Positions 18,446-32,300 of a stretch of 33,140 bases of DNA are shown here, one piece after another. Every line of letters starts with the position of its first letter. The first letter of the stretch is position 1. The DNA is taken from the NCBI RefSeq assembly GCF_028686475.1, contig NZ_JAQUCA010000029.1, positions 1 to 33,140 on the forward strand. The letters run 5' to 3'. The notes under the pieces are model-generated. The model worked only from the letters and a program-made list of their open reading frames with translations, did no database searches and had not been told where the DNA came from. The position numbers and the translations under genes are program-made. Origin of the DNA: Giesbergeria sp. (GTDB taxonomy: Bacteria > Pseudomonadota > Gammaproteobacteria > Burkholderiales > Burkholderiaceae_C).

Positions 18446-19280
18446 CTGTTTTATGCCCATTGAGCAGCACCCGATGCTCGCTGTGCCACTTCACGGCGCG
18501 TGCCAGCACTTGGCTTTCGGTGTCGCGCCCGCGTGCGGTTAGTGTTTCTACCGTGTCCGTATGGTCAGCGCGTGTAACATCTTGTTCGATAATCGGGCCT
18601 TCGTCCAAATCAGCGGTTACATAATGGGCCGTCGCACCAATCAGCTTCACACCTCGGTCATGGGCTTGGTAGTAGGGTTTGGCCCCCTTAAAACTGGGCA
18701 AAAAGCTATGGTGGATGTTGATGGCACGGCCTGCCAACTTGGTACAAAAATCGTCCGACAGCACTTGCATGTAGCGTGCCAACACCACCAACTCGGCCCC
18801 CTCGGCTTGGATGATTTCGTACTGGCGCGCCTCGGCTTGGGCTTTGGTGGCCGCCGTGACAGGAATATGGTGAAAAGGAATGTTGTAACTGGCCGCAAGC
18901 TGGTAAAAATCGCGGTGGTTGCTGATGATGGCGCGAATGTCCACCGGCAGCAGCCCAGATTTCCACCGAAACAGCAAATCATTGAGACAATGGCCCTCGC
19001 GGCTGACCAAAAGCACCGTGGGCATGGGCTGCGCCAAGGCGTGCAAACTCCAGTGCATTTGGTAATTTTGGGCAAAGTGGGCCATCTGCTCCAACAAGGT
19101 AGCATGGTCATGCACCGTGCAAGCAAATTGCACGCGCATAAAAAACAAGCCGGTGGCAGCATCGTTGTACTGGGCGGCTTCTTCGATGTTGCCGCTGTGT
19201 TCCAGCAAAAAGCCCGACACAGCATGAACCAGCCCCAATTGGTCAGGGCAAGAAAGAGTAAGAACGTAAGCGTGGGTCAT
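18432..19280 (-). CDS. purU: Formyltetrahydrofolate deformylase PurU
   Basis: Hydrolyses 10-formyl-THF to THF and formate, balancing one-carbon pools and supplying formate for purine synthesis. The 282-residue length matches E. coli PurU (280). An ACT regulatory domain (about 4-80, beginning YVLTLSCPDQLGLVHAVSGF) precedes the formyltransferase-like domain. Catalytic landmarks are NIHHSFLPSFKGAKPY and ATAHYVTADLDEGPIIEQD, holding the conserved Asn, His and Asp. ATG 19280 begins the ACT domain; a longer reading to 19322 is unlikely. It borders the R-M operon on the left and is transcribed away from it. Confidence 0.96.
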   Translation of the reverse strand: MTHAYVLTLSCPDQLGLVHAVSGFLLEHSGNIEEAAQYNDAATGLFFMRVQFACTVHDHATLLEQMAHFAQNYQMHWSLHALAQPMPTVLLVSREGHCLNDLLFRWKSGLLPVDIRAIISNHRDFYQLAASYNIPFHHIPVTAATKAQAEARQYEIIQAEGAELVVLARYMQVLSDDFCTKLAGRAINIHHSFLPSFKGAKPYYQAHDRGVKLIGATAHYVTADLDEGPIIEQDVTRADHTDTVETLTARGRDTESQVLARAVKWHSEHRVLLNGHKTVIFR

Positions 19281-19295
19281 AACAACAAGATTGTC

Positions 19296-19352
19296 GCAGC
19301 ATGACACCCAACACTGCTGCACGGGTTAAAAACGATTTGTATAAAGAAGAGC
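19296..19352 (+). promoter_or_regulatory. Possible promoter/operator of the mod operon
   Basis: The 72-bp gap between purU and mod holds an inverted repeat (GCAGCA at 19296-19301, TGCTGC at 19315-19320) and a good -10 like hexamer TATAAA (19340-19345). No convincing -35 is seen, and the -10 is so close to ATG 19353 that the transcript would have almost no leader. Tentative. Confidence 0.25.
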
Positions 19353-22300
19353 ATGAGCACCCCTACCCCCCTGCCCGTTGAAAGCCGTTTTGTCGAGCTG
19401 ATGACCGAGTTGTTTCAGATGGACGAAGCCCAAGCCCTAGACTTTGGCATCTACCGCGTTATCCGCCGCCACAACCGCCAAGTGCAGGCTTTTTTAGGCC
19501 GAGTGCTCAGTAGCCAACACGGCAAGCGCCTAGAGGGTGGCAAACTCTCTGCCTTGCTAGAGCAAGCCTTTAGCGTCTCTGGCCACGAGGCACAGGCCGA
19601 AGACAAATTTCGGCTCAAACAGCTAGAAGCCCAATTGGGCCTCAAACCCGGCCTGACCTACGCGCAAAAAGAAGCCATCCTGGGCCAAGCGCAAAGCATT
19701 CCGGCCATCCAAGAACTGGTGGCCGAATACCAAAGCCGCGTAGCCGCACAAACCAGCCAGCAAACCGCACAGCAAGACCGTGCCGAGGTACTCAACCGCC
19801 TGTACCAATTTTTTGCCCGCCACTACCAAGACGGCGACTTCATCGTCGAGCGCCGCTATGGCAAAAATGGGGCGCGCTACGTTAAATCTACCGGCGAAGA
19901 TACCGAGTTCCATTGGGCCACCGAGGACATGTACTACATCAAGTCGGGCGACATTTTTACCGACTTTCCTGTCACGCTGGCCAGTGGCCAACGCATCGTT
20001 TTTAGCGTAGAACCCAGCAGCTTACAGGCCACACGCGCCGCCCTCAAACCCAACGACAAAGCCCACTACGCACTCGATAGCATCACCAGTGCAGAAGGCG
20101 ACGCACTCCAAGTGCGCCTGCTTTACCTGAAAGGGGCGCAAACCGAAAAGCAAAAAGAAGACATCGTCCGCGCGGTGCAACAAGCCAGCCACAGCACCAG
20201 CGCAGAAGCAGGTTTAGAGATTCGCCGCTGGTTGCAGCGCTTGCTGGCACGCAACCAAAGCGATTTTTTCATCCACAAGCGCCTCAAAGAAGCCCTGAGC
20301 GCAGACTTGGACATCTTCCTGAAAACCGAAGTGCTGGATGTGGACCAATTGCTGGCCAACCATGCTACTGCCACCGATTTACCCCAACGCGCCCTGAAAG
20401 TAGCACGCATCGTGCGCGACATTGGCATGCAAATCATTGACTTTTTGGCCACGCTAGAAGATTTTCAGAAAGCACTGTGGGAAAAGAAAAAACTGGTCTT
20501 TGCCACCCGCTACGTCATCACCCTCGACCGGCTAGAGCGCTATTGCCCCCACTGGTTGGCGCAAAACATTAACCACATCGTGCAGCGCCAACGCGCAGAG
20601 TGGCAAACGCTGGGTTTGGGCGACTACCCCCAAGCCAGCGCCTGCATACGCCAAACCGAGGGCGACTTGGCCACCCCGGCCAGCCAGCGTTACCTACCGC
20701 TGCCCCTAGACACACAAAACTTTGACAGTGCCTTCCAATGGGCCATGTTAGAGGCTATCACGGCAGCCGCGCCGCTAGATGATAATTTAGATGGCATAGT
20801 AATTCAGTCAGATAACTGGCAAGCACTTAATTCAATAGTTAACAGATATAAAAACGAAGTTAACTGCATATATACTGATCCTCCTTATAATAGTGATGCA
20901 GGCCCCATTTCTTATAAAAATGGTTATCGTCATGCATCTTGGCTTACACTAATACAAGACAGACTTAGACTTACAAAAAACTTTCTTATTGATTCAGGTA
21001 TACATTGCATAACTATTGATGATTACGAGGCTCATAGACTCAGGAATTTAGCAGAAACTACTATTTCTGAATACAATTTTTTGGGTGTTGCTTTAATAAA
21101 AAATAATCCAGCAGGCAGAACTGGCACTACAGGGTTTTCAGCTTGTCATGAATACGCATATTTTTATGGGATGTCAAACACTGCTCAGATTGATCGACTA
21201 GAACACAGCGAAGCCCAAAAATCACGCTACAAGGAAAAAGACGAAATTGGTTTTTTTGAATGGACAAACTTTCGAAAACATGGCGGCTTAAATACCTATA
21301 AAACAACACGACCAAGACAATTTTATCCAATCTATGTAAATGGAAAATCAATTAGAATTCCAGAAATGAATTGGGATAATTTGTCTAGGCAATATAAAAT
21401 TAATGAACCTCCACTTGAGAATGAGGAAGTTCTTCTTCCAATTGATGAAAAAGGCAATGAAAGGATTTGGGATTTTGTTGTTGATACAGCAAAAGAAAAT
21501 ATTTCTCATTTAAAAGTTAAAAAAGATTCACGCGGAGAGACGGCTATTTATAGAAAATGGCGTATTAATGAAGATGGGTTGCTACCCCAAACATGGTGGG
21601 AAAAAAAGCAATATTCAGCAGCAGAATATGGAACAAATCTACTAACGAAGCTATTTGGATCTAGTCATATTTTTATGTTTCCAAAATCAGTTTATGCGGT
21701 AGCTGATTGCTTGAAAGTAAGTGGACTACGGAGTGATCAAAGTGGACTAGTTTTGGATTTTTTTGCAGGGTCTGGAACTACAGGCCATGCTGTAATTAAA
21801 TTAAATAAACAAGATGCTGGAAATCGTAAATTTCTTCTTGTTGAAGCGAATCAATACATTGATCAAGTTACTATTCCTAGACTTAAAAAAGTCAGTGCCG
21901 CAAGTGATTGGCTAGGTGGAAAAACTGACAAATTAGATGGCATCGGCATTTTCATGCGCGTGCAGCAGCTAGAGCAATACGAAGACACCCTAGAAAACCT
22001 AGACAGCGACCTACCCCAAGGCGATAGCGCCGACTTGCTGTTTCAAGACCCCGCCTTTGCCCTGCGTTACCGCTTAGACAGCAGCGCCCACGCCCTCTAT
22101 TGCGCCGTAGAGCGCTTTGCCAGCCCCTTTGGCTACCAGTTAAAACGCGCCGTGGGCGGTGGCCAAGCACAACTGCACAACGTTGATTTACTCGAAAGCA
22201 TGCCCTACCTGCTGGGCTTGCAGGTCAGCCGCCTTTATCGCCAAGACCAAGGCGCAGTGCTACTGGGCCACAACCGGCAAGGCCAAAGCGTGGCCGTTTT

Positions 22301-22469
22301 CTTCCGAGACTGTGCCATGCCAGACACAGCCCAATGGCTACAAACCAAACTGGCCCAACACCCCGCCGACCGGGTTTATACCAACGACCCAGCCAGCCTT
22401 AGCTTTCAGGGCTGCGAACAATTCGAGGCCATCGAAGGCATTTTTGCACAACAGTTTGAGAAGCATTAA
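19353..22469 (+). CDS. Type III-like DNA methyltransferase (Mod), mosaic gene
   Basis: A 1038-residue adenine/cytosine-N4 methyltransferase of beta-class motif order. The N-terminal 470 residues (with ALDFGIYRVIRRHNRQVQAFL near 28-48) resemble the conserved, non-catalytic part of large type III-like Mod proteins. Catalytic motif IV is DPPY (509-512) in IYTDPPYNSDAG; the AdoMet motif I is DFFAGSGTTG (802-811). The roughly 290 residues between them should be the target-recognition domain. The C-terminal 175 residues probably contact Res. The striking feature is composition: about residues 475-865 are encoded by AT-rich DNA while both ends are GC-rich. The following gene starts 1 nt after the stop. 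Mod family is clear; the target site is unknown. Confidence 0.92.
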   Translation: MSTPTPLPVESRFVELMTELFQMDEAQALDFGIYRVIRRHNRQVQAFLGRVLSSQHGKRLEGGKLSALLEQAFSVSGHEAQAEDKFRLKQLEAQLGLKPGLTYAQKEAILGQAQSIPAIQELVAEYQSRVAAQTSQQTAQQDRAEVLNRLYQFFARHYQDGDFIVERRYGKNGARYVKSTGEDTEFHWATEDMYYIKSGDIFTDFPVTLASGQRIVFSVEPSSLQATRAALKPNDKAHYALDSITSAEGDALQVRLLYLKGAQTEKQKEDIVRAVQQASHSTSAEAGLEIRRWLQRLLARNQSDFFIHKRLKEALSADLDIFLKTEVLDVDQLLANHATATDLPQRALKVARIVRDIGMQIIDFLATLEDFQKALWEKKKLVFATRYVITLDRLERYCPHWLAQNINHIVQRQRAEWQTLGLGDYPQASACIRQTEGDLATPASQRYLPLPLDTQNFDSAFQWAMLEAITAAAPLDDNLDGIVIQSDNWQALNSIVNRYKNEVNCIYTDPPYNSDAGPISYKNGYRHASWLTLIQDRLRLTKNFLIDSGIHCITIDDYEAHRLRNLAETTISEYNFLGVALIKNNPAGRTGTTGFSACHEYAYFYGMSNTAQIDRLEHSEAQKSRYKEKDEIGFFEWTNFRKHGGLNTYKTTRPRQFYPIYVNGKSIRIPEMNWDNLSRQYKINEPPLENEEVLLPIDEKGNERIWDFVVDTAKENISHLKVKKDSRGETAIYRKWRINEDGLLPQTWWEKKQYSAAEYGTNLLTKLFGSSHIFMFPKSVYAVADCLKVSGLRSDQSGLVLDFFAGSGTTGHAVIKLNKQDAGNRKFLLVEANQYIDQVTIPRLKKVSAASDWLGGKTDKLDGIGIFMRVQQLEQYEDTLENLDSDLPQGDSADLLFQDPAFALRYRLDSSAHALYCAVERFASPFGYQLKRAVGGGQAQLHNVDLLESMPYLLGLQVSRLYRQDQGAVLLGHNRQGQSVAVFFRDCAMPDTAQWLQTKLAQHPADRVYTNDPASLSFQGCEQFEAIEGIFAQQFEKH
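20787..20797 (+). repeat. 11-nt direct repeat, left edge of AT-rich mod segment
   Basis: TTAGATGGCAT, reading Leu-Asp-Gly-Ile. The identical word occurs at 21933-21943, in the same codon phase, where the AT-rich segment ends. Confidence 0.7.
21933..21943 (+). repeat. 11-nt direct repeat, right edge of AT-rich mod segment
   Basis: Second copy of TTAGATGGCAT (first at 20787-20797). Recombination between the two would remove or exchange the segment without shifting the frame. Confidence 0.7.
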
Positions 22470-22470
22470 A

Positions 22471-22731
22471 ATGCCCATTATCAGCCGATTTTTTGGCATC
22501 ATTATTCGCATGTTTTTTAATGAACATGCACCGCCACATTTCCATGCCGAATATGGCGATTACCACGTTATCATCAATATCCGCACGCTAGAAGTAATGG
22601 AAGGAAAATTTCCACGTCGCGCCCTCGGATTGGTACTCGACTGGACCGAACTGCACCAAACCGCCTTGCTGCAAGACTGGGATTTGTGCCAACAACACCA
22701 ACAACCCTCTGAAATTGCCCCACTAGAATAA
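22471..22731 (+). CDS. DUF4160 domain protein
   Basis: An 86-residue protein. MPIISRFFGIIIRMFFNEHAPPHFHAEY contains the DUF4160 core: a short strand region and the PPHFHAEYG His-rich motif, then ISIP-like IINIRTLEVMEGKFPRRALGLVLDW and an acidic C-terminus. Members usually occur directly before DUF2442, as here, and the pair has been suspected of being a toxin-antitoxin-like unit; that is not proven. It starts 1 nt after the mod stop and lies inside the R-M operon. Its first half is near 40% GC, lower than flanking genes. A longer in-frame reading starting within mod is not supported, since the family begins at MPI. Confidence 0.85.
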   Translation: MPIISRFFGIIIRMFFNEHAPPHFHAEYGDYHVIINIRTLEVMEGKFPRRALGLVLDWTELHQTALLQDWDLCQQHQQPSEIAPLE

Positions 22732-22742
22732 GGAGCCACCCG

Positions 22743-22997
22743 ATGCAATGGCATGTCATTGAAGCACACGTTATTCAACCTGGTTGCTTTCAAGTTAAAT
22801 TTGCCGACGGCACGCAAGGCACCGTGCGTTTTGCCCCCAGTGCCTATCGCGGCGTATTTGCCAAATTGCGCGACCCAGCAGAGTTCAATCGCTTGTACGT
22901 GAATGGCTATTTTGTCACTTGGCCGGGCGAACTCGATTTGGCACCCGATGCCATGCACCACCACATCAAGGAATCAGGCGAATGGCTGTTGCAGTAA
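22743..22997 (+). CDS. DUF2442 domain protein
   Basis: An 84-residue protein with the DUF2442 pattern: an N-terminal strand pair ending FQVKFADGTQGTVRFAPS, then YRGVFAKLRDPAEFNRLYVNGYFVTWPGELDLAPDAM. The family is the usual partner of DUF4160, 11 nt upstream here; AGGAG precedes ATG 22743. DUF2442 proteins have no known catalytic residues. Its 3' end overlaps the helicase start by 16 nt, which ties the pair to the restriction genes. Confidence 0.85.
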   Translation: MQWHVIEAHVIQPGCFQVKFADGTQGTVRFAPSAYRGVFAKLRDPAEFNRLYVNGYFVTWPGELDLAPDAMHHHIKESGEWLLQ

Positions 22998-25447
22998 AGC
23001 GCTCAGGCCATGCCCGACTTAAAGCAGCATTGGTACTGCGCGATGCCTTGGCGGCAGAATTGGGCTTGCCCCTGCCTGCGGCAATGGCCCAATTGCGTAC
23101 CGTAGAAAACAATATCGGTGCCGCACAAGGCTTGGCCGATGGCAAATACCTAGAGGCCATAGGCTCAGTATGCAGCAACGATGCCCAGCAGCTTTTGGCG
23201 CTGGACCACGACATACGGCAAGCCTGCGCCCGCGTGCGCTTTGCGCCACGCTATGCCCAATATCTGGCCCTGCTGCTGTTTGCCCACTGGCTAGAGGCCC
23301 AAATGCAAGATGCTGCGGCCTTCTTGTTTCGCCTCAATGCCTACCTAGACGCACACCCCCCCAAGGGTGAGACCATCGCCCCCTTTACCCCCGCTGATTT
23401 GCAATTGGCCGCCTTCTGGATGGCCACCGCCGCCGGTAAAACGCATATTCTGCACGCCTGTTTAGCCCTGCTAGAAAAGCGCCGCCACTGGGATCGCTGC
23501 ATCGTCGTTACTCCCTCAGAATCACTCACCCGCCAACACGCCGACAAACTGCGCCAGTTGGCAGCATGGCCCGTTTTTGCCTACCCTATGGATGGAGATG
23601 CCTCGGCCTTGGGTTATCTATCGCCTGATACCGTTATCGTCCTAGACATCAACAAACTAGCCGCCGAAAAAAAAGGCGACGGCATCACCCTGCCCACATC
23701 GGTATTTACCGAAGGGCGCAATCTGGTATTTGTAGATGAAGGCCACAAAGGCCAAAAATCAGAAGCCAGCGTTTGGAAAGCCTTACAAGCCGATTTGGCC
23801 GGCATTGCAGCCCTCAACCCCCAGCATCGCGGCTTGCTAATAGAGTTCTCTGCCACCTTTGGCCAAGTGGCCGAAACCGAACATGCCTTTGACCGCTACG
23901 CCAAAGCGGTGCTGTTAGATTACGCCTACGACCGCTTCCACCAAGACCGCTATGGCAAAGACTTTTGGCATGTGCGCGTACAAGCCAAAGACGAAGCCAG
24001 CGCCAGTACACAACGCCAAACCCTGACGGCGGCATTGCTATCGTTTTGGCATCAAACCACCAGCTACCGCTCCACCCAAGCCCAACAAGCCGCCGCCCAG
24101 TTAGGGCTACAAATAGCCGCGCCCTTGTGGGTATTGTTGGGCTTGTCGGTCATTGGCAGCCAAAAAAACAAAAACGATGAGCAACAAACCTCCGACGTAG
24201 TGGAGGTGCTGGGCTACCTCAACACCATGCTGGCACAACCCGCACAATTGGCGCACAGCATCGCCCAACTTTTAGCCACCGCCATCGTAGGCGCAGACCT
24301 GCTGCCTGCCGCGGTGCGCCAAGCCAGCGTGGGCTGGGATAGCACCGCCTTGGCCCAGCGGGTACTGGCCGATTGCTTGGGCTGGCAACCCGGCGACAAG
24401 CCCGTGCTGCGCCTTATCAAGGCCGCCACCGGCGAGCTAGGCTTGGGCTTGTTGCGCGGTGACACTTCGCACTATTACGGCGTGGTCAACGTCGGTGATG
24501 CCGTGGGCCTGAAAAAATCCCTAGAAGCAGCCCACTTAACCGTAGAAGATGATGCCCTATCAGGCTCCTTGTTCGCGCAACTCGATGCCCCCCACAGTGG
24601 CCTGAATGTGTTGATTGGTTCGCGCCGCTTTGCTGAAGGCTGGGACAACTACCGTGCCTCTAGCCTCACTTTATTGCGTCTGGGCCAAGGCGAAGGGGCG
24701 CTCATCATCCAAATGTTTGGCCGTGTGGTGCGCTTTGCAGGTATTCATAACGACGGCAAACGGCTAGAACGCCCCCCGGCGGCACTGGCTCCACTGCAAA
24801 CCGCCTATGTGTTTGGCCTTAAATCCGCCTACCTTGACACCTTTTTACAAAGCCTGACCGACAACGGCGTGCTGGGCTTACAGCGCATCGAATGCCCAAT
24901 ACGCCAACATACCCCAGCGCTGCTCCAGTCGGTACGCACCTTGGCACCGCAGCCCCAAGACTTCCATGTTCAGGCCATCGGTAGCGACTGGCTCCGCAGC
25001 GTCAATGCCATCCACATTTCTTTAACTGCCGCCATCACCACCTTAAAACTCAAAGACAGCCAAACCCAAGCCCAACAAGGCACGTTGGGCCAAGACATGA
25101 CCGCCGAATTTCAACAATGCAGCGTATTACTTAGCCGCGATGCGCTGTACCGTGAACTGGTGCAATGGAAGCGCACCCAAGGCTGGTGGAATTTTGCTTT
25201 TAATCAGCACGCCATTGATTGCGCGCTCGCCAGCGATAAATATGCCATCTGGGGCCTTCCGGGTATGCTTAACGTGCAGCAAGCAGCCGATTTAGCACGC
25301 CTGCATCGCTTAGCTGCCACCGTGGTGCGCCGCCTGTTTGAAAGCGCCTACCGCAAACAAGCAAGTCGCCACAGCCGCTACACCCTCATAGCCTCTCAAG
25401 ACAGTGGCATTCCCGAGCAGTATTACAAGGACTTTCTGAATGCCTAG
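22982..25447 (+). CDS. Type III Res-like SF2 helicase subunit (no nuclease domain)
   Basis: An 821-residue ATP-dependent DNA translocase/helicase. Superfamily 2 motifs in order: Walker A TAAGKT (149-154), Walker B-like DEGH (252-255), motif III SAT (290-292), motif V in SRRFAEGWDNYRASS and motif VI QMFGRVVR (577-584). In type III restriction enzymes this motor domain follows ATP-driven search and is fused to a C-terminal endonuclease; here the protein stops after the helicase and accessory region, and the nuclease is the next gene. ATG 22982 is preferred to upstream in-frame codons because it is the first ATG, and MAVAVKRSGHARLKAALVLRD looks like the true N-terminus. It overlaps the nuclease start by 8 nt. 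Confidence 0.9.
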   Translation: MAVAVKRSGHARLKAALVLRDALAAELGLPLPAAMAQLRTVENNIGAAQGLADGKYLEAIGSVCSNDAQQLLALDHDIRQACARVRFAPRYAQYLALLLFAHWLEAQMQDAAAFLFRLNAYLDAHPPKGETIAPFTPADLQLAAFWMATAAGKTHILHACLALLEKRRHWDRCIVVTPSESLTRQHADKLRQLAAWPVFAYPMDGDASALGYLSPDTVIVLDINKLAAEKKGDGITLPTSVFTEGRNLVFVDEGHKGQKSEASVWKALQADLAGIAALNPQHRGLLIEFSATFGQVAETEHAFDRYAKAVLLDYAYDRFHQDRYGKDFWHVRVQAKDEASASTQRQTLTAALLSFWHQTTSYRSTQAQQAAAQLGLQIAAPLWVLLGLSVIGSQKNKNDEQQTSDVVEVLGYLNTMLAQPAQLAHSIAQLLATAIVGADLLPAAVRQASVGWDSTALAQRVLADCLGWQPGDKPVLRLIKAATGELGLGLLRGDTSHYYGVVNVGDAVGLKKSLEAAHLTVEDDALSGSLFAQLDAPHSGLNVLIGSRRFAEGWDNYRASSLTLLRLGQGEGALIIQMFGRVVRFAGIHNDGKRLERPPAALAPLQTAYVFGLKSAYLDTFLQSLTDNGVLGLQRIECPIRQHTPALLQSVRTLAPQPQDFHVQAIGSDWLRSVNAIHISLTAAITTLKLKDSQTQAQQGTLGQDMTAEFQQCSVLLSRDALYRELVQWKRTQGWWNFAFNQHAIDCALASDKYAIWGLPGMLNVQQAADLARLHRLAATVVRRLFESAYRKQASRHSRYTLIASQDSGIPEQYYKDFLNA

Positions 25448-26540
25448 CAAGAAGCCCGCGTCAAGCACACAAAACGGACTGTTCGGCACCACGTTGGCTT
25501 GTCCAGACATCGACAGTTTGCCCCTGATTGTCGATCCACAAGGTGCCATCGAAGTGCTGGCTCCGGGCAGCGTGTACCAGCCCCTGCTACTTACTGCGCC
25601 ACAGGGCGAAATTGATGTAGGCCCCGGCAAACTCGACGCACACGAAGAAGCCTTTGTGCGCGACTTGATTCGCCGCCTATACCCCGCTGGCAACCACCCT
25701 AAAAGCGACAAAACCCCACTGCAATGGGGCAACAAACAAATTTGGCTCAAGCGCAATATAGAAAAACGTGACGATTCATTTCGCTTGTGCTTCGATAATT
25801 CAGATTGGTTTTACCCTGACTTTATTGTCTGGATACTAGACTATGCTTCACGCACCCAAACCTTTGGCTTTGTCGATCCCAAAGGCTTGGTACAGGGCAC
25901 GCGCGAAGGCTGGGCCAACCACAAAATTATCTCCACCCTGTATATGCCGCATGTGGTAGAACGCCAACTAGCGGCCAGCGGACAAAAGGTGCAATTTGAG
26001 GGCGAGGAATGGACATTCCGCATCCGTGGCGTGCTGCTGTCCAACTCATCGCTGGCCAACTTAACGGCAGAGGCCAAATTTTTCATCAAAGATGAAAATG
26101 GCCAAGACCTTGCGCCGTCTGAAGCAGACTTCAAACGCGGGCGCATCGTGGTGCAAAAGCCCGGCACAGCCTACATTGACGATGTGTTAGAGCTGCTCAC
26201 GCAAGATTCTGCCATCGACCATTTATTGCATCTTGCAGCCCAACTGTCAGAGAGCAGCGCACATTTTGTCCCCACTGACGAAATGACGCACGACCTAGCC
26301 TTACGTCATGCAGAGCATAACCAAACCGAGTCAGAATTTATCGCTGCGCTACTGCGCGACTACTTAAAACCTGATGCCACTAACTTGTATGGCCAGTGGC
26401 CTCGCAAAAAGCGCCAGCGGCAATTGATGGACTATGCCACTAAAGGAAAATGGGGCTTTGGCGCCGAAAAAGTACCCGACATCCGAGATCATCCCACGCC
26501 AATTACCGAGCTGTGGAAGCGCAAACAGCAGGAAAAATGA
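25440..26540 (+). CDS. PD-(D/E)XK nuclease, separate Res endonuclease subunit
   Basis: A 366-residue protein. A PD-(D/E)XK nuclease core is visible: YPDF (125-128, Asp127), 18 residues, then VDPK (145-148, Asp146 and Lys148), followed by a helix with an aromatic/His-rich ANHKIISTLYM. This spacing resembles the endonuclease domain at the end of type III Res proteins, which cut DNA after two enzymes converge. Being a separate ORF, with ATG overlapping the helicase stop (ATGCCTAG), suggests a two-subunit Res rather than a frameshift, since both halves have proper ends. Residues after 210 show no recognised domain. Its stop overlaps the next start (ATGA). Confidence 0.8.
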   Translation: MPSKKPASSTQNGLFGTTLACPDIDSLPLIVDPQGAIEVLAPGSVYQPLLLTAPQGEIDVGPGKLDAHEEAFVRDLIRRLYPAGNHPKSDKTPLQWGNKQIWLKRNIEKRDDSFRLCFDNSDWFYPDFIVWILDYASRTQTFGFVDPKGLVQGTREGWANHKIISTLYMPHVVERQLAASGQKVQFEGEEWTFRIRGVLLSNSSLANLTAEAKFFIKDENGQDLAPSEADFKRGRIVVQKPGTAYIDDVLELLTQDSAIDHLLHLAAQLSESSAHFVPTDEMTHDLALRHAEHNQTESEFIAALLRDYLKPDATNLYGQWPRKKRQRQLMDYATKGKWGFGAEKVPDIRDHPTPITELWKRKQQEK

Positions 26541-29345: not shown

Positions 29346-32300
29346 ATGAAACGCGAAAACCTTGGCCGCGCGCAGGACGTGACGGCCACCCAGCCCATTA
29401 GCCTAGACGTACTTAAAGAAAAATACCTCAAGGCCGGGGAAACCAGCGCCGAAGACCTGTTTCGCCGCGTTGCCCGTTCTTTGGCCAGCGTAGAAAAGCC
29501 CGAACTGCGCGAAGAATACGAAGCCCTGTTCTTGGCCAACCTGCACGCCGGAGCCATTGGCGCTGGGCGCATCATGAGTGCCGCTGGCACCGACATCCAA
29601 GCCACCCTCATCAATTGCTTTGTGCAACCCGTGGGCGATTGCATCCAAGGCATGGACGACGAAGGCTTCCCTGGCATTTACGAAGCCCTGCGCGAAGCCG
29701 CCGAAACCATGCGCCGTGGCGGGGGTGTAGGTTACGATTTTTCGCGCATCCGCCCACGTGGTGCTGAAGTCAAAGGCACGCACTCGATGGCCTCTGGCCC
29801 CTGCAGTTACATCAACGTCTTTGACCAATCTTGCTCTACCGTAGAAAGCGCTGGCGCACGGCGTGGCGCACAAATGGGCGTGCTACGCATTGACCATCCA
29901 GACGTGCTGGACTTCATTACCGCCAAACGCACACCCGGACGTTGGAACAACTTTAACGTCTCCGTCGGTGTCAGCGATGCCTTTATCGACGCGGTGCAAA
30001 ACGAACAAGCCTGGGAGCTGGTTCACAAAGCCACCCCCGGTGCCGATGTGCTGGCCGAAGGTGCCTACCAACGTGAAGATGGCCTGTGGGTCTATCAAAC
30101 CGTGCAGGCGCGGGACTTGTGGGACACCATCATGAAGTCGGCCTACGATTTTGCCGAGCCGGGCATCCTGTTCCTCGACCACATCAACACCGACAACAAC
30201 CTGCACTACTGCGAAAAAATCGCTGCTACCAACCCGTGCGTCACTGGCGACACCCGCTTGGCCACGCAATACGGCTTGGTGCGTATCGACCAACTCTATG
30301 CCAGCGGCCAGCCCCTGAGTGTCACCGTCGATAAACGCGCACTGGGACAAGACGAACGCGGCATCGAGATACGCTCCGCCAAACCCGCCTTCATGACCGC
30401 CCGCGAAGCCGATGTTTATCGCGTCGTCACTGCCGACGGCTATGAAATCAAAGCCACCGCTTGGCACGACTTTTACACCGAGCGCGGCAAAATCAAGCTG
30501 TCTGAAATGCAGGTCGGGGATGAACTCTGGATACAAACCGGCAAAGGCCAGTTTGGCCAGCAAGGCAGCGCCGAATTAGGGCAACTGCTGGGCTTAATTA
30601 CCGGTGATGGCCACTTCACCAACCAAGGCAAAGGGCAAGAGGCCGTTTGTATCAACCTCTGGAACCAAGACCGGGTACTGGCCGAGCAAGTAGCGCACAC
30701 CGTCAATGCCCTGATTGCCAGTTCTGCACGGGCCGTGCGGGCTTACCAAGTCCACCCTGTCGCCGTGGCGGAACGCAATCAAGTCTTTATCCGTTCCGTG
30801 CTGCTGGCGCGCGTGCTGGCCGAAATGGGCTTTACCCGCGACACCAAACTGCGCGTGCCCGAAGTGATTTGGCAAGGCAGCGAAGACTGTGTGCGTGCCT
30901 ACCTGCGCGCACTGTTCCAAGCCGATGGCACCGTCAACGTCTCTAGCGCCAATCAAAGTTGTTCGGTGCGTTTAAGCTCCAGTTATCCGCTATTGCTGAA
31001 AGATGTGCAAATGTTGCTGGCCAATTTTGGAATTTTTAGCCGTGTACGCCAGCGCCGGGCAGCAAGCGTCAAAGAGATGCCCAATGGCAAGGGAGGCCAA
31101 TCCCCCTACCCATGCCAAACACAATACGAATTGCTGATTGATGGGCAATCGCGTGAGATTTTCATGCAAGACATTGGCTTCTTGCTAGAGGGCAAAACTC
31201 AGCGCTATACTAACTGGGTGCAAGATAAAGTTTTGCGTAAAACACAGCGTTTTACCAGCAAAGTGATTGAAATTGCGCACGCTGGCCGCGAAGCAGTGTA
31301 CGATACCACCCAGCCAGACCACAATACCGTCATCTTTAACGGCCTAGTCAGTGGGCAGTGCGGTGAGCAGCCGTTGCCCTCCTACGGCTGCTGCGACCTC
31401 GGCCCCATCATCCTAACCCACTTTGTGCGTAGCCCCTTCGGCTTTGATGGCAGCCCCCGCTTTGATTTTGAAGCCTTCGAGAAATCCGTCGCTTTGCAAG
31501 TGCGCGCACTTGACAACGTGCTGGATGTCACCTTCTGGCCGCTGCCCCAGCAACGCGACGAAGCCCACGCCAAACGCCGCATTGGGGTCGGTTTTACCGG
31601 CATGGGCAACACCTTGGCCATGCTGTGCCTGCGCTACGATGCCCCCGAAGGCCGAGCGATGGCCGCCCAAATTGCCGAACGCATGCGTAACGCGGCCTAC
31701 AAAGCCTCGGTTGAACTGGCGCGCGAAAAAGGCCCTTTCCCACGCTTTGATGCCGAAGGCTACCTAGCACCCGGCACCTTTGCCAGCCGCCTGCCCGCAG
31801 CGCTGCAAAAAGAAATTCGCAAACACGGCATCCGTAACAGCCATTTGCTCTCGATTGCCCCCACCGGCACCGTCAGCTTGGCCTTTGCCGACAACGCCTC
31901 CAATGGTATCGAGCCGCCATTTTCGTGGATGTACAAGCGCAAAAAGCGCGAAGCCGACGGCAGCACCTCCGAATATGCCGTAGAAGACCACGCTTGGCGT
32001 CTGTTCCGTGAGCTGGGCGGCGATGTCAACAAGCTGCCCGAATATTTTGTTTCAGCGCTAGAAATGTCGGCAGCCGACCACATCGCCATGATGGAAGCCG
32101 TGCAGCCCTTTGTCGATACCGCCATTTCCAAAACCGTCAACATCCCCGCAGATTATCCTTACGATGATTTCAAGGGCTTGTATCTGCAAGCATGGCGCGC
32201 GCGCCTGAAGGGGCTGGCCACCTACCGTCCGAACAATATCTTAGGCTCGGTGCTAGAAGTCCACAGCGCATCAGCAGCAACGGCCAGCAACAACACCGCC

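What the first reader, a model, noticed from the sequence alone, without database searches (positions are those of the whole stretch)
20775..21945. Mosaic mod gene: specificity/catalytic core replaced by AT-rich DNA
GC falls from 60-67% to 32-37% exactly over the part of mod from motif IV (DPPY) to motif I (FFAGSGTTG), and returns sharply. The frame is intact, and the N- and C-terminal parts, which should bind the Res subunits, remain host-like. The simplest reading is exchange of the target-recognition core by recombination, giving a new methylation specificity while keeping the partner interfaces.
Basis: partly seen in the sequence, partly recalled or inferred. Interest (0 to 1): 0.75.

Follow-up and report, generated by a model that had tools for sequence, protein, structure and literature searches.

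The report
Swappable recognition core in methyltransferase gene
A bacterial restriction-modification gene carries an AT-rich, apparently foreign middle piece that chooses which DNA is marked; relatives show similar outer parts joined to unrelated middles, so this kind of immune system seems to change its target by swapping one cassette.

Summary
The composition break is real and sharp: codons 475-862 of the 1038-codon mod gene (window 20775-21938) have GC3 0.20, against 0.65-0.67 on either side; none of 2597 overlapping windows sampled from the same genome is as AT-rich. Immediate flanks are 53-59% GC, not 60-67%.

Exchange is supported mainly by relatives. Over the window and 16 relatives, core identity is uncorrelated with that of the N-part, C-part or Res (Spearman -0.17 to 0.06), while those track one another (0.85-0.91). 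L011 and L012 have Res helicases 98% alike and cores 30% alike. The window's core is sister to L013's; its flanks reject that pairing.

Two corrections. The 7.2-kb operon is itself an island: no room for it at this site in 7 of 9 congeners fetched. And a lower-GC core is not diagnostic of a recent swap: 27 of 27 other full-length homologues show it, as do 80 of 82 usable type III Mods by a motif-based test, but not Dam (11 of 30). The window is an extreme case.

Specificity swapping is known (modA, H. pylori); taking the whole catalytic domain is a variant. The class-wide AT-rich recognition domain is the most interesting by-product.

The parts
19353..22469 (+). mod: type III DNA methyltransferase, 1038 aa
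   Evidence: PADLOC MTase_III PDLC03646 E 8e-116; Pfam N6_N4_Mtase E 2e-21; PDB relatives EcoP15I Mod, Mbo45V Mod
19353..20774 (+). host-like N-part of mod (residues 1-474), inferred partner arm
   Evidence: GC3 0.667; 53-73% identical to the window in 16 relatives (L012 left out); tracks C-part and Res
20775..21938 (+). AT-rich exchanged core (codons 475-862): motif IV, target recognition domain, motif I
   Evidence: ML breakpoints on GC3, GC3 0.20; core identity to 17 relatives 25-76%, unrelated to flank identity
20877..20888 (+). catalytic motif IV DPPY (residues 509-512)
20943..21743 (+). target recognition domain as used here (residues 531-797)
   Evidence: residues 641-760 are 8-15% identical in 11 relatives with the other core type; lowest GC3 of the mod and available res parts in 28 of 28 full-length mods
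21759..21785 (+). AdoMet motif I FFAGSGTTG (residues 803-811)
21939..22469 (+). host-like C-part of mod (residues 863-1038)
   Evidence: GC3 0.65; identity tracks ResH identity, Spearman 0.91
22471..22731 (+). DUF4160 / DhiT-like toxin gene
   Evidence: Pfam PF13711 E 4e-23; NCBIfam NF048015 79.7 bits, under its cut-off of 100
22743..22997 (+). DUF2442 gene, likely the antitoxin partner
   Evidence: Pfam PF10387 E 4e-9; antitoxin role and the name DhiA recalled, from no call
22982..25447 (+). res helicase half (likely ATG start; mechanical ORF begins 22919)
   Evidence: Pfam ResIII E 1e-8; PADLOC REase_III 2e-53
25440..26540 (+). res nuclease half as a separate overlapping gene, PD-(x)18-DxK by eye
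   Evidence: PADLOC REase_III profile 998-1052, E 6.5e-6; no Pfam family; sequence
19304..26536 (.). whole operon as an island between purU and a GGDEF/EAL gene
   Evidence: in L054 the matches to window 19303 and 26537 lie about 33 bp apart; no room for the operon in 7 of 9 congeners fetched, undecided in 2

Best explanation
This is the Mod subunit of a type III restriction-modification system in which the methyltransferase core (motif IV, target recognition domain, motif I) has been replaced as one cassette by recombination inside mod, leaving the N-part, C-part and Res unchanged. Because Mod dictates the site for both methylation and Res cleavage in type III systems (established knowledge), one exchange would re-target protection and restriction together without a mismatch. 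Shown: sharp compositional cassette, intact frame, decoupled histories of core versus flanks and Res, near-identical backgrounds with unrelated cores, island status of the operon. Inferred: homologous recombination as the route, a new recognition site, flanks as Res/dimer interfaces, and an AT-rich donor. Whether the swap came before or after the operon entered this genome is not known.
For: Breakpoints and composition. Core identity uncorrelated with N, C, ResH, ResN (Spearman 0.06, -0.01, 0.01, -0.17) while N-C is 0.88 and C-ResH 0.91, 17 rows. Same backgrounds with different cores: L011-L012 ResH 98 / ResN 98 / C 86 / core 30; L013-L017 N 89 / C 80 / ResH 90 / core 32; L011-L025 N 87 / C 84 / ResH 93 / core 30. 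Reverse: L018-L019 core 72 / N 51 / C 44. AU tests. In a two-breakpoint DNA fit on 7 near pairs that I chose, the dissimilar block ends past motif I in 7 of 7 and begins before DPPY in 5 of 7.
Against: No donor: the closest core is 76% identical (L013), a viral-contig scan with core patterns found nothing, and phages and plasmids gave only distant matches among those listed. The low-GC core is a family and class trait, so composition does not date the event. One genome per species is held, so no sister-strain allele was seen. Two of the three strongest pairs involve a disrupted mod: L012 is frame-shifted in its N-part and L017 has an in-frame stop at the core's left edge; L011 and L025 are open over the part held. 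AU clades were named after identities were seen. The DNA fit always returns a block, and edges vary by method (L013/L017 left edge: residue 528 by blastn; 495 by fit). One near pair, L021-L024, has a 67% core in a 90% background and may simply have diverged.
Confidence: 0.9

Rival explanations
1. The dip is an inherent property of the recognition core (long-term selection for A/T-ending codons, or mutation bias) and no recent replacement occurred in this lineage.
For: Core GC3 is below the flanks in 27 of 27 other full-length homologues; 80 of 82 usable type III Mods show it after adjusting for amino acids.
Against: The window's drop (0.464) exceeds that of all 27 others (mean 0.166, sd 0.082, max 0.328) and by the motif-based definition ranks 3rd of 83. 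Histories conflict between core and flanks. In the window the motif IV and motif I segments are as AT-rich as the TRD.
Confidence: 0.07
2. The core is fast-evolving, not exchanged: flanks are conserved and the core diverges quickly under diversifying selection.
For: In 72 of 91 pairs there is an inner block at least 15 points less alike, as fast divergence would also give.
Against: Pairs with the opposite pattern exist: cores 61-76% alike in mods whose N- and C-parts are less alike than the cores (window-L013, L014-L011, L018-L019, L019-L020). L011 and L012, with Res 98% alike and cores 30% alike, would need an implausible rate; in the window composition changes at the same edge.
Confidence: 0.02
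3. Assembly chimera of two mod genes in the draft genome.
For: The window's genome is a 65-contig draft.
Against: Frame intact over both junctions, conserved junction residues, single copy, and a complete relative (L013) with the same core type in the same architecture.
Confidence: 0.01

Closest known systems
[quoted passage not shown]
   Same: Conserved 5' and 3' parts around a variable recognition domain; en bloc exchange by recombination and horizontal transfer; lower GC reported for the modA12 recognition domain than for its flanks.
   Different: There DPPY and FxGxG are described as lying in the conserved regions; here the AT-rich block takes in both, and the FxGxG segment lies in the dissimilar block in 7 of 7 near pairs. 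No phase-variable tract was found in or 100 nt upstream of the window's mod. Mod is about 1040 aa and Res is in two genes.
Type III TRD movement in Helicobacter pylori (Furuta and Kobayashi 2012: not held; known only as quoted in passages of PMC3983042)
   Different: I could not read how far its exchanged block reaches; here the block includes motif I and, in the window, motif IV, in a long Mod with split Res.
EcoP1I / EcoP15I
   Same: PMC8259958 (parts 1-3 of 4 read) states nearly identical Res with divergent Mod recognition domains; EcoP15I Mod is among the closest solved structures.
   Different: EcoP15I Mod is 644 aa; Res as one gene is recalled.
m4C type III systems (PMC8259958, parts 1-3 of 4 read)
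   Same: Beta-class Mods with DPPY/F and FGG motifs; the long-Mod plasmid relatives L181-L183 have an ATPase or helicase gene upstream of mod, as the paper describes for some.
   Different: The window has purU there and no such ATPase; which base it methylates cannot be told from sequence.

Membership tests
Type III restriction-modification system | Beta-class Mod: motif IV (DPPY) before motif I (FxGxG) | tested here: met
   DPPY at 509-512, FFAGSGTTG at 803-811; PADLOC MTase_III E 8e-116
Type III restriction-modification system | Adjacent Res with SF2 helicase domain | tested here: met
   Pfam ResIII E 1e-8, above its cut-off; PADLOC REase_III 2e-53
Type III restriction-modification system | PD-(D/E)XK nuclease domain on Res | tested here: inconclusive
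   On a separate overlapping gene; PADLOC REase_III C-terminal stretch E 6.5e-6, PD-(x)18-DxK by eye; no Pfam or NCBIfam family
Type III restriction-modification system | Asymmetric one-strand methylation and cleavage 25-27 bp away | not testable with these tools
   needs a methylome and a cleavage assay
modA-type recognition-domain exchange | Variable centre, conserved arms, incongruent histories | tested here: met
modA-type recognition-domain exchange | Catalytic and AdoMet motifs stay in the conserved arms | tested here: not met
   GC3 block 475-862 spans both motifs; DNA-level blocks end past motif I in 7 of 7 pairs, begin before DPPY in 5 of 7
Phasevarion mod | Phase-variable simple repeat tract in or just before mod | tested here: not met
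   Tandem Repeats Finder on 19200-22600: one weak 12-bp array, 2.6 copies; no homopolymer of 8 A/T or 7 G/C and no 2-6-base unit in 5 or more copies in mod plus 100 nt upstream

The most novel reading that the evidence does not exclude
Type III Mod recognition domains as a class are kept markedly AT-rich relative to the rest of their own gene, in hosts of nearly any GC content, because they circulate continually through a shared AT-rich pool and are always the youngest part of the gene; the depth of the dip would then act as a clock for the last exchange, and complete-core swaps like this one could even change the chemistry (m6A versus m4C) along with the site.
Probability: 0.3. Interest if true: 0.65.

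Novelty: new variant of a known kind. Interest (0 to 1): 0.5.

Why it matters
It shows a type III system, found in records labelled as several proteobacterial classes and other phyla, evolving by cassette exchange of the methyltransferase core while its Res and outer Mod parts stay put. It also shows that a GC dip over a recognition domain, which can be read as a sign of recent acquisition, was present in 80 of 82 usable type III mods, and so needs phylogenetic support before it is dated.

Tried and rejected
Donor search: the core was sought in viral contigs by six 8-residue patterns (nothing), in phages (119 records; of those listed, matches over 80% or more of the core are about 24-31% identical; two records are in the 60-80% band, one of which was shown, a 40-residue match to the motif I region, the other was not listed), in plasmids (best 44.8%, Hymenobacter) and in 369 genomes of the class (best other 40%). 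No donor named. The genome scan also works by six short patterns, so more distant relatives were missed.

Second silent copy or cassette in the same genome: none; other matches are 28-46% identical and partial.

Direct repeat at the edges as an exchange signal: the window has an 11-bp repeat (TTAGATGGCAT) at both edges, but the other 16 family members have at most 9 bp (own mean 6.8 over 17, cross-pair mean 6.3; 3 of 272 cross pairs reach 11), so I treat it as incidental.

Structure: the AlphaFold model from 14 sequences is weak (pLDDT 64.9, pTM 0.46); Foldseek only confirms Mod kinship, so no interface conclusion is drawn.

Coreless mods in Methylococcaceae bins (L032, L034, L036): broken or cut genes whose gaps do not match the cassette edges; not used as evidence.

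My own errors: the L017 core and L012 N-part were mis-framed; L017 was corrected and L012's N-part left out, whose correlations are the ones quoted. An earlier count said 6 of 9 congeners lack the operon at this site; one search shows 7 of 9.

Fixed AT-rich donor pool versus constraint: TRD GC3 = -0.03 + 0.72 x expected; the drop shrinks in AT-rich hosts (Spearman -0.54), which fits a pool but also a floor effect. Not resolved.

Full report
What is there. Window 19353-22469 encodes one open frame of 1038 aa, a type III Mod: PADLOC MTase_III E 8e-116, Pfam N6_N4_Mtase, with EcoP15I Mod (4zcf), Mbo45V Mod (7dsu) and 6k0w as solved relatives by sequence and fold. It is followed by a DUF4160 gene (NCBIfam DhiT toxin model, 79.7 bits, under its cut-off of 100), a DUF2442 gene, a Res helicase and a separate overlapping nuclease-like gene.

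Composition. GC is 0.53-0.57 before, 0.33-0.37 inside and 0.58-0.59 just after the block, then 0.46-0.52 over 22250-22999. The two-breakpoint fit puts the edges at codons 475 and 862, with 2dLL 224 against at most 13.8 in 20 shuffles; GC3 is 0.667, 0.202 and 0.647 for the three parts. In 275 kb of the same genome (14 of 18 stretches fetched; 4 short ones left out) GC3 of 128 long ORFs averages 0.66 (sd 0.062), and 0 of 2597 overlapping windows of the same length are as AT-rich.

The operon is an island. In L054, the congener whose PurU is nearest to the window's, window positions 19303 and 26537 match about 33 bp apart, so mod through res nuclease is absent there. Of 9 congeners fetched (out of 23 others with PurU), 7 have purU and the GGDEF gene too close for the operon (gaps 33 to about 470 bp); in the other 2 only purU matched. 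Mod itself was sought in only 3 congeners, without a match at E 1e-30. So 'host-like' flanks means host-like in composition, not ancestral to the host.

Relatives. One pattern-based scan of the species-genome collection with the full protein gave 26 loci, a viral-contig scan 3, and 299 family genomes 7 besides the window, at 34-40% identity. Against the window, in 17 close relatives, the N-part is 53-73% (L012 not counted), the C-part 45-69% (L023 not counted) and the core 25-76% identical. L013 has the closest core (76%), L010 and L015 the closest N-part (73%) and C-part (69%).

Decoupling. Over 136 pairs of 17 rows (window and 16 relatives; L023 left out), core identity has Spearman 0.06 with N (120 pairs; L012's N left out), -0.01 with C, 0.01 with ResH and -0.17 with ResN (91 pairs); N-C is 0.88, C-ResH 0.91, ResH-ResN 0.90. 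Alike backgrounds with unlike cores: L011-L012 (ResH 98, ResN 98, C 86, core 30), L013-L017 (N 89, C 80, ResH 90, core 32), L011-L025 (N 87, C 84, ResH 93, core 30). The reverse also occurs: L018-L019 (core 72, N 51, C 44). Against this: L012's mod is frame-shifted in the N-part and L017's has an in-frame stop, so of these three pairs only L011-L025 joins two alleles open over the part held; and L021-L024 (N 90, C 88, core 67) may be ordinary divergence.

Trees. With 16 of 18 rows (L012 and L023 left out), window+L013 is 100/100 in the core and rejected for N (AU p 0.0044) and C (0.013). L013+L017 is 100/100 for N, not rejected for C (0.447) and rejected for the core (1e-57). L011+L025 is 100/99 for N, 98/100 for C and rejected for the core (1e-173). 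The clades were chosen after seeing identities, so the p-values are indicative. Many inner branches are weak: 5 of 13 are open in the N tree and 9 of 13 in the C tree.

Exchange unit. For 7 near pairs that I chose, a two-breakpoint fit on DNA identity puts the right edge past motif I in 7 and the left edge before DPPY in 5 and after it in 2 (inner identity 0.47-0.60, outer 0.74-0.91). The fit always returns a block, and blastn places the L013/L017 left edge later, at about residue 528. In modA the two motifs are described as lying in the conserved regions (PMC3311624, passages). So this family seems often to exchange most of the methyltransferase domain. Protein identity alone tells another edge: 72 of 91 pairs have a less alike inner block, with its left end at 530-539 in 50 of 72 and its right end at 798-801 in 27 and 858-866 in 16 of 72, as expected if the motifs are alike in all such enzymes. 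Across the family GC3 of the motif IV and motif I segments is below both flanks in 21 and 19 of 28 mods, against 28 of 28 for the TRD, so the edges of the exchanged unit vary.

The dip is general. Core GC3 is below the flanks in 27 of 27 other full-length mods (9 of 36 loci dropped for coverage under 75%); mean drop 0.166, sd 0.082, maximum 0.328; window 0.464. After adjusting for amino acids the core is below expectation in 28 of 28; the TRD is the lowest-GC3 part, against N, C and whatever res parts were at hand, in 28 of 28, the core as a whole in 27 of 28; a sham block in the N-part is negative in 5 of 28. With a motif-based definition, 96 loci were asked and 82 usable: long mods 27 of 27 (36 asked), classical type III mods of a phylum sample 20 of 21, one lower-GC family (f170) 28 of 28 (29 asked), plasmid picks 5 of 6 (10 asked); in all 80 of 82 negative. 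Controls: Dam mean +0.023, 11 of 30 negative (30 loci kept from 38 genomes with a match). YhdJ-like orphan enzymes mean +0.01, 2 of 5 negative, 3 of 8 unusable, among these the only one over the family's cut-off, so this control is weak. Sham C-part against N-part: -0.008 in long mods (16 of 27 negative), -0.045 in classical mods (36 of 49), -0.055 in plasmid picks (5 of 6), so a weaker signal spills past the TRD. Rows share ancestry (L015 and L016 are near copies), so no strict p-value is claimed. The window ranks 3rd deepest of 83 by this definition.

Mechanism. Most likely a donor mod entered by horizontal transfer and recombined at the short conserved stretches flanking the core (LDxxLDGxxIxSDNWQALN on the left, GxGxFxRVQxLEQY on the right, read). 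Since Mod chooses the site for both methylation and cleavage, one event re-targets both. The recombination route, the new specificity and the Res-binding role of the arms are inferred, not shown. No phase-variable tract was found.

Literature. Seen: PMC3311624 (outline, passages, section 13), PMC3983042 (passages), PMC8259958 (parts 1-3 of 4). Furuta and Kobayashi 2012 is not held and is known only as quoted in PMC3983042. The searches showed no title or abstract start on a class-wide AT-rich TRD; most lists were capped and one search found nothing, so this is weak evidence of absence. PMC3311624 reports lower GC for one allele, modA12.

Noticed in passing
82 usable type III mods, loci: Amino-acid-adjusted GC3 of the recognition domain lies below that of the rest of the same gene in 80 of 82, in hosts of low and high GC; not in Dam controls (11 of 30).
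   Followed up: partly
window 22471-22997; L013, L014, L015, L016, L017, L020, L036: A DhiT-like gene (DUF4160) sits after mod, 79-80% identical in L013 and L014 but only 38-41% in the other five; no match in L010-L012, L018, L019, L025, L026 and L031, where mod and res lie close. The gap between mod and res looks like a slot for optional genes.
   Followed up: partly
window 30241-31357: An intein-like insert in the ribonucleotide reductase gene; this DNA is absent from congeners L054, L055 and L057.
   Followed up: no
L174 (Ligilactobacillus salivarius plasmid pHN3, record 29911-35866): Six tandem genes, alternately about 0.54 and 1.4-1.5 kb, all annotated site-specific DNA-methyltransferase, resembling an array of split mod alleles.
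   Followed up: no
L181, L182, L183: Plasmid-borne long mods have an ATPase or helicase gene upstream of mod (with a 1.3-kb hypothetical gene between in L183), as PMC8259958 describes for some m4C type III systems.
   Followed up: no
L017 9396-9460; L012 N-part: The Accumulibacter mod has an in-frame stop just inside the core's left edge and the L012 mod is frame-shifted in its N-part; broken alleles or assembly errors.
   Followed up: no
L015 and L016: Near-identical mods in metagenome bins labelled Acidiphilium and Acidobacteria; one label may be wrong, or the operon moved recently.
   Followed up: no
L032, L034, L036: Methylococcaceae bins with broken or cut mods that lack the core; the gaps do not match the cassette edges.
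   Followed up: partly
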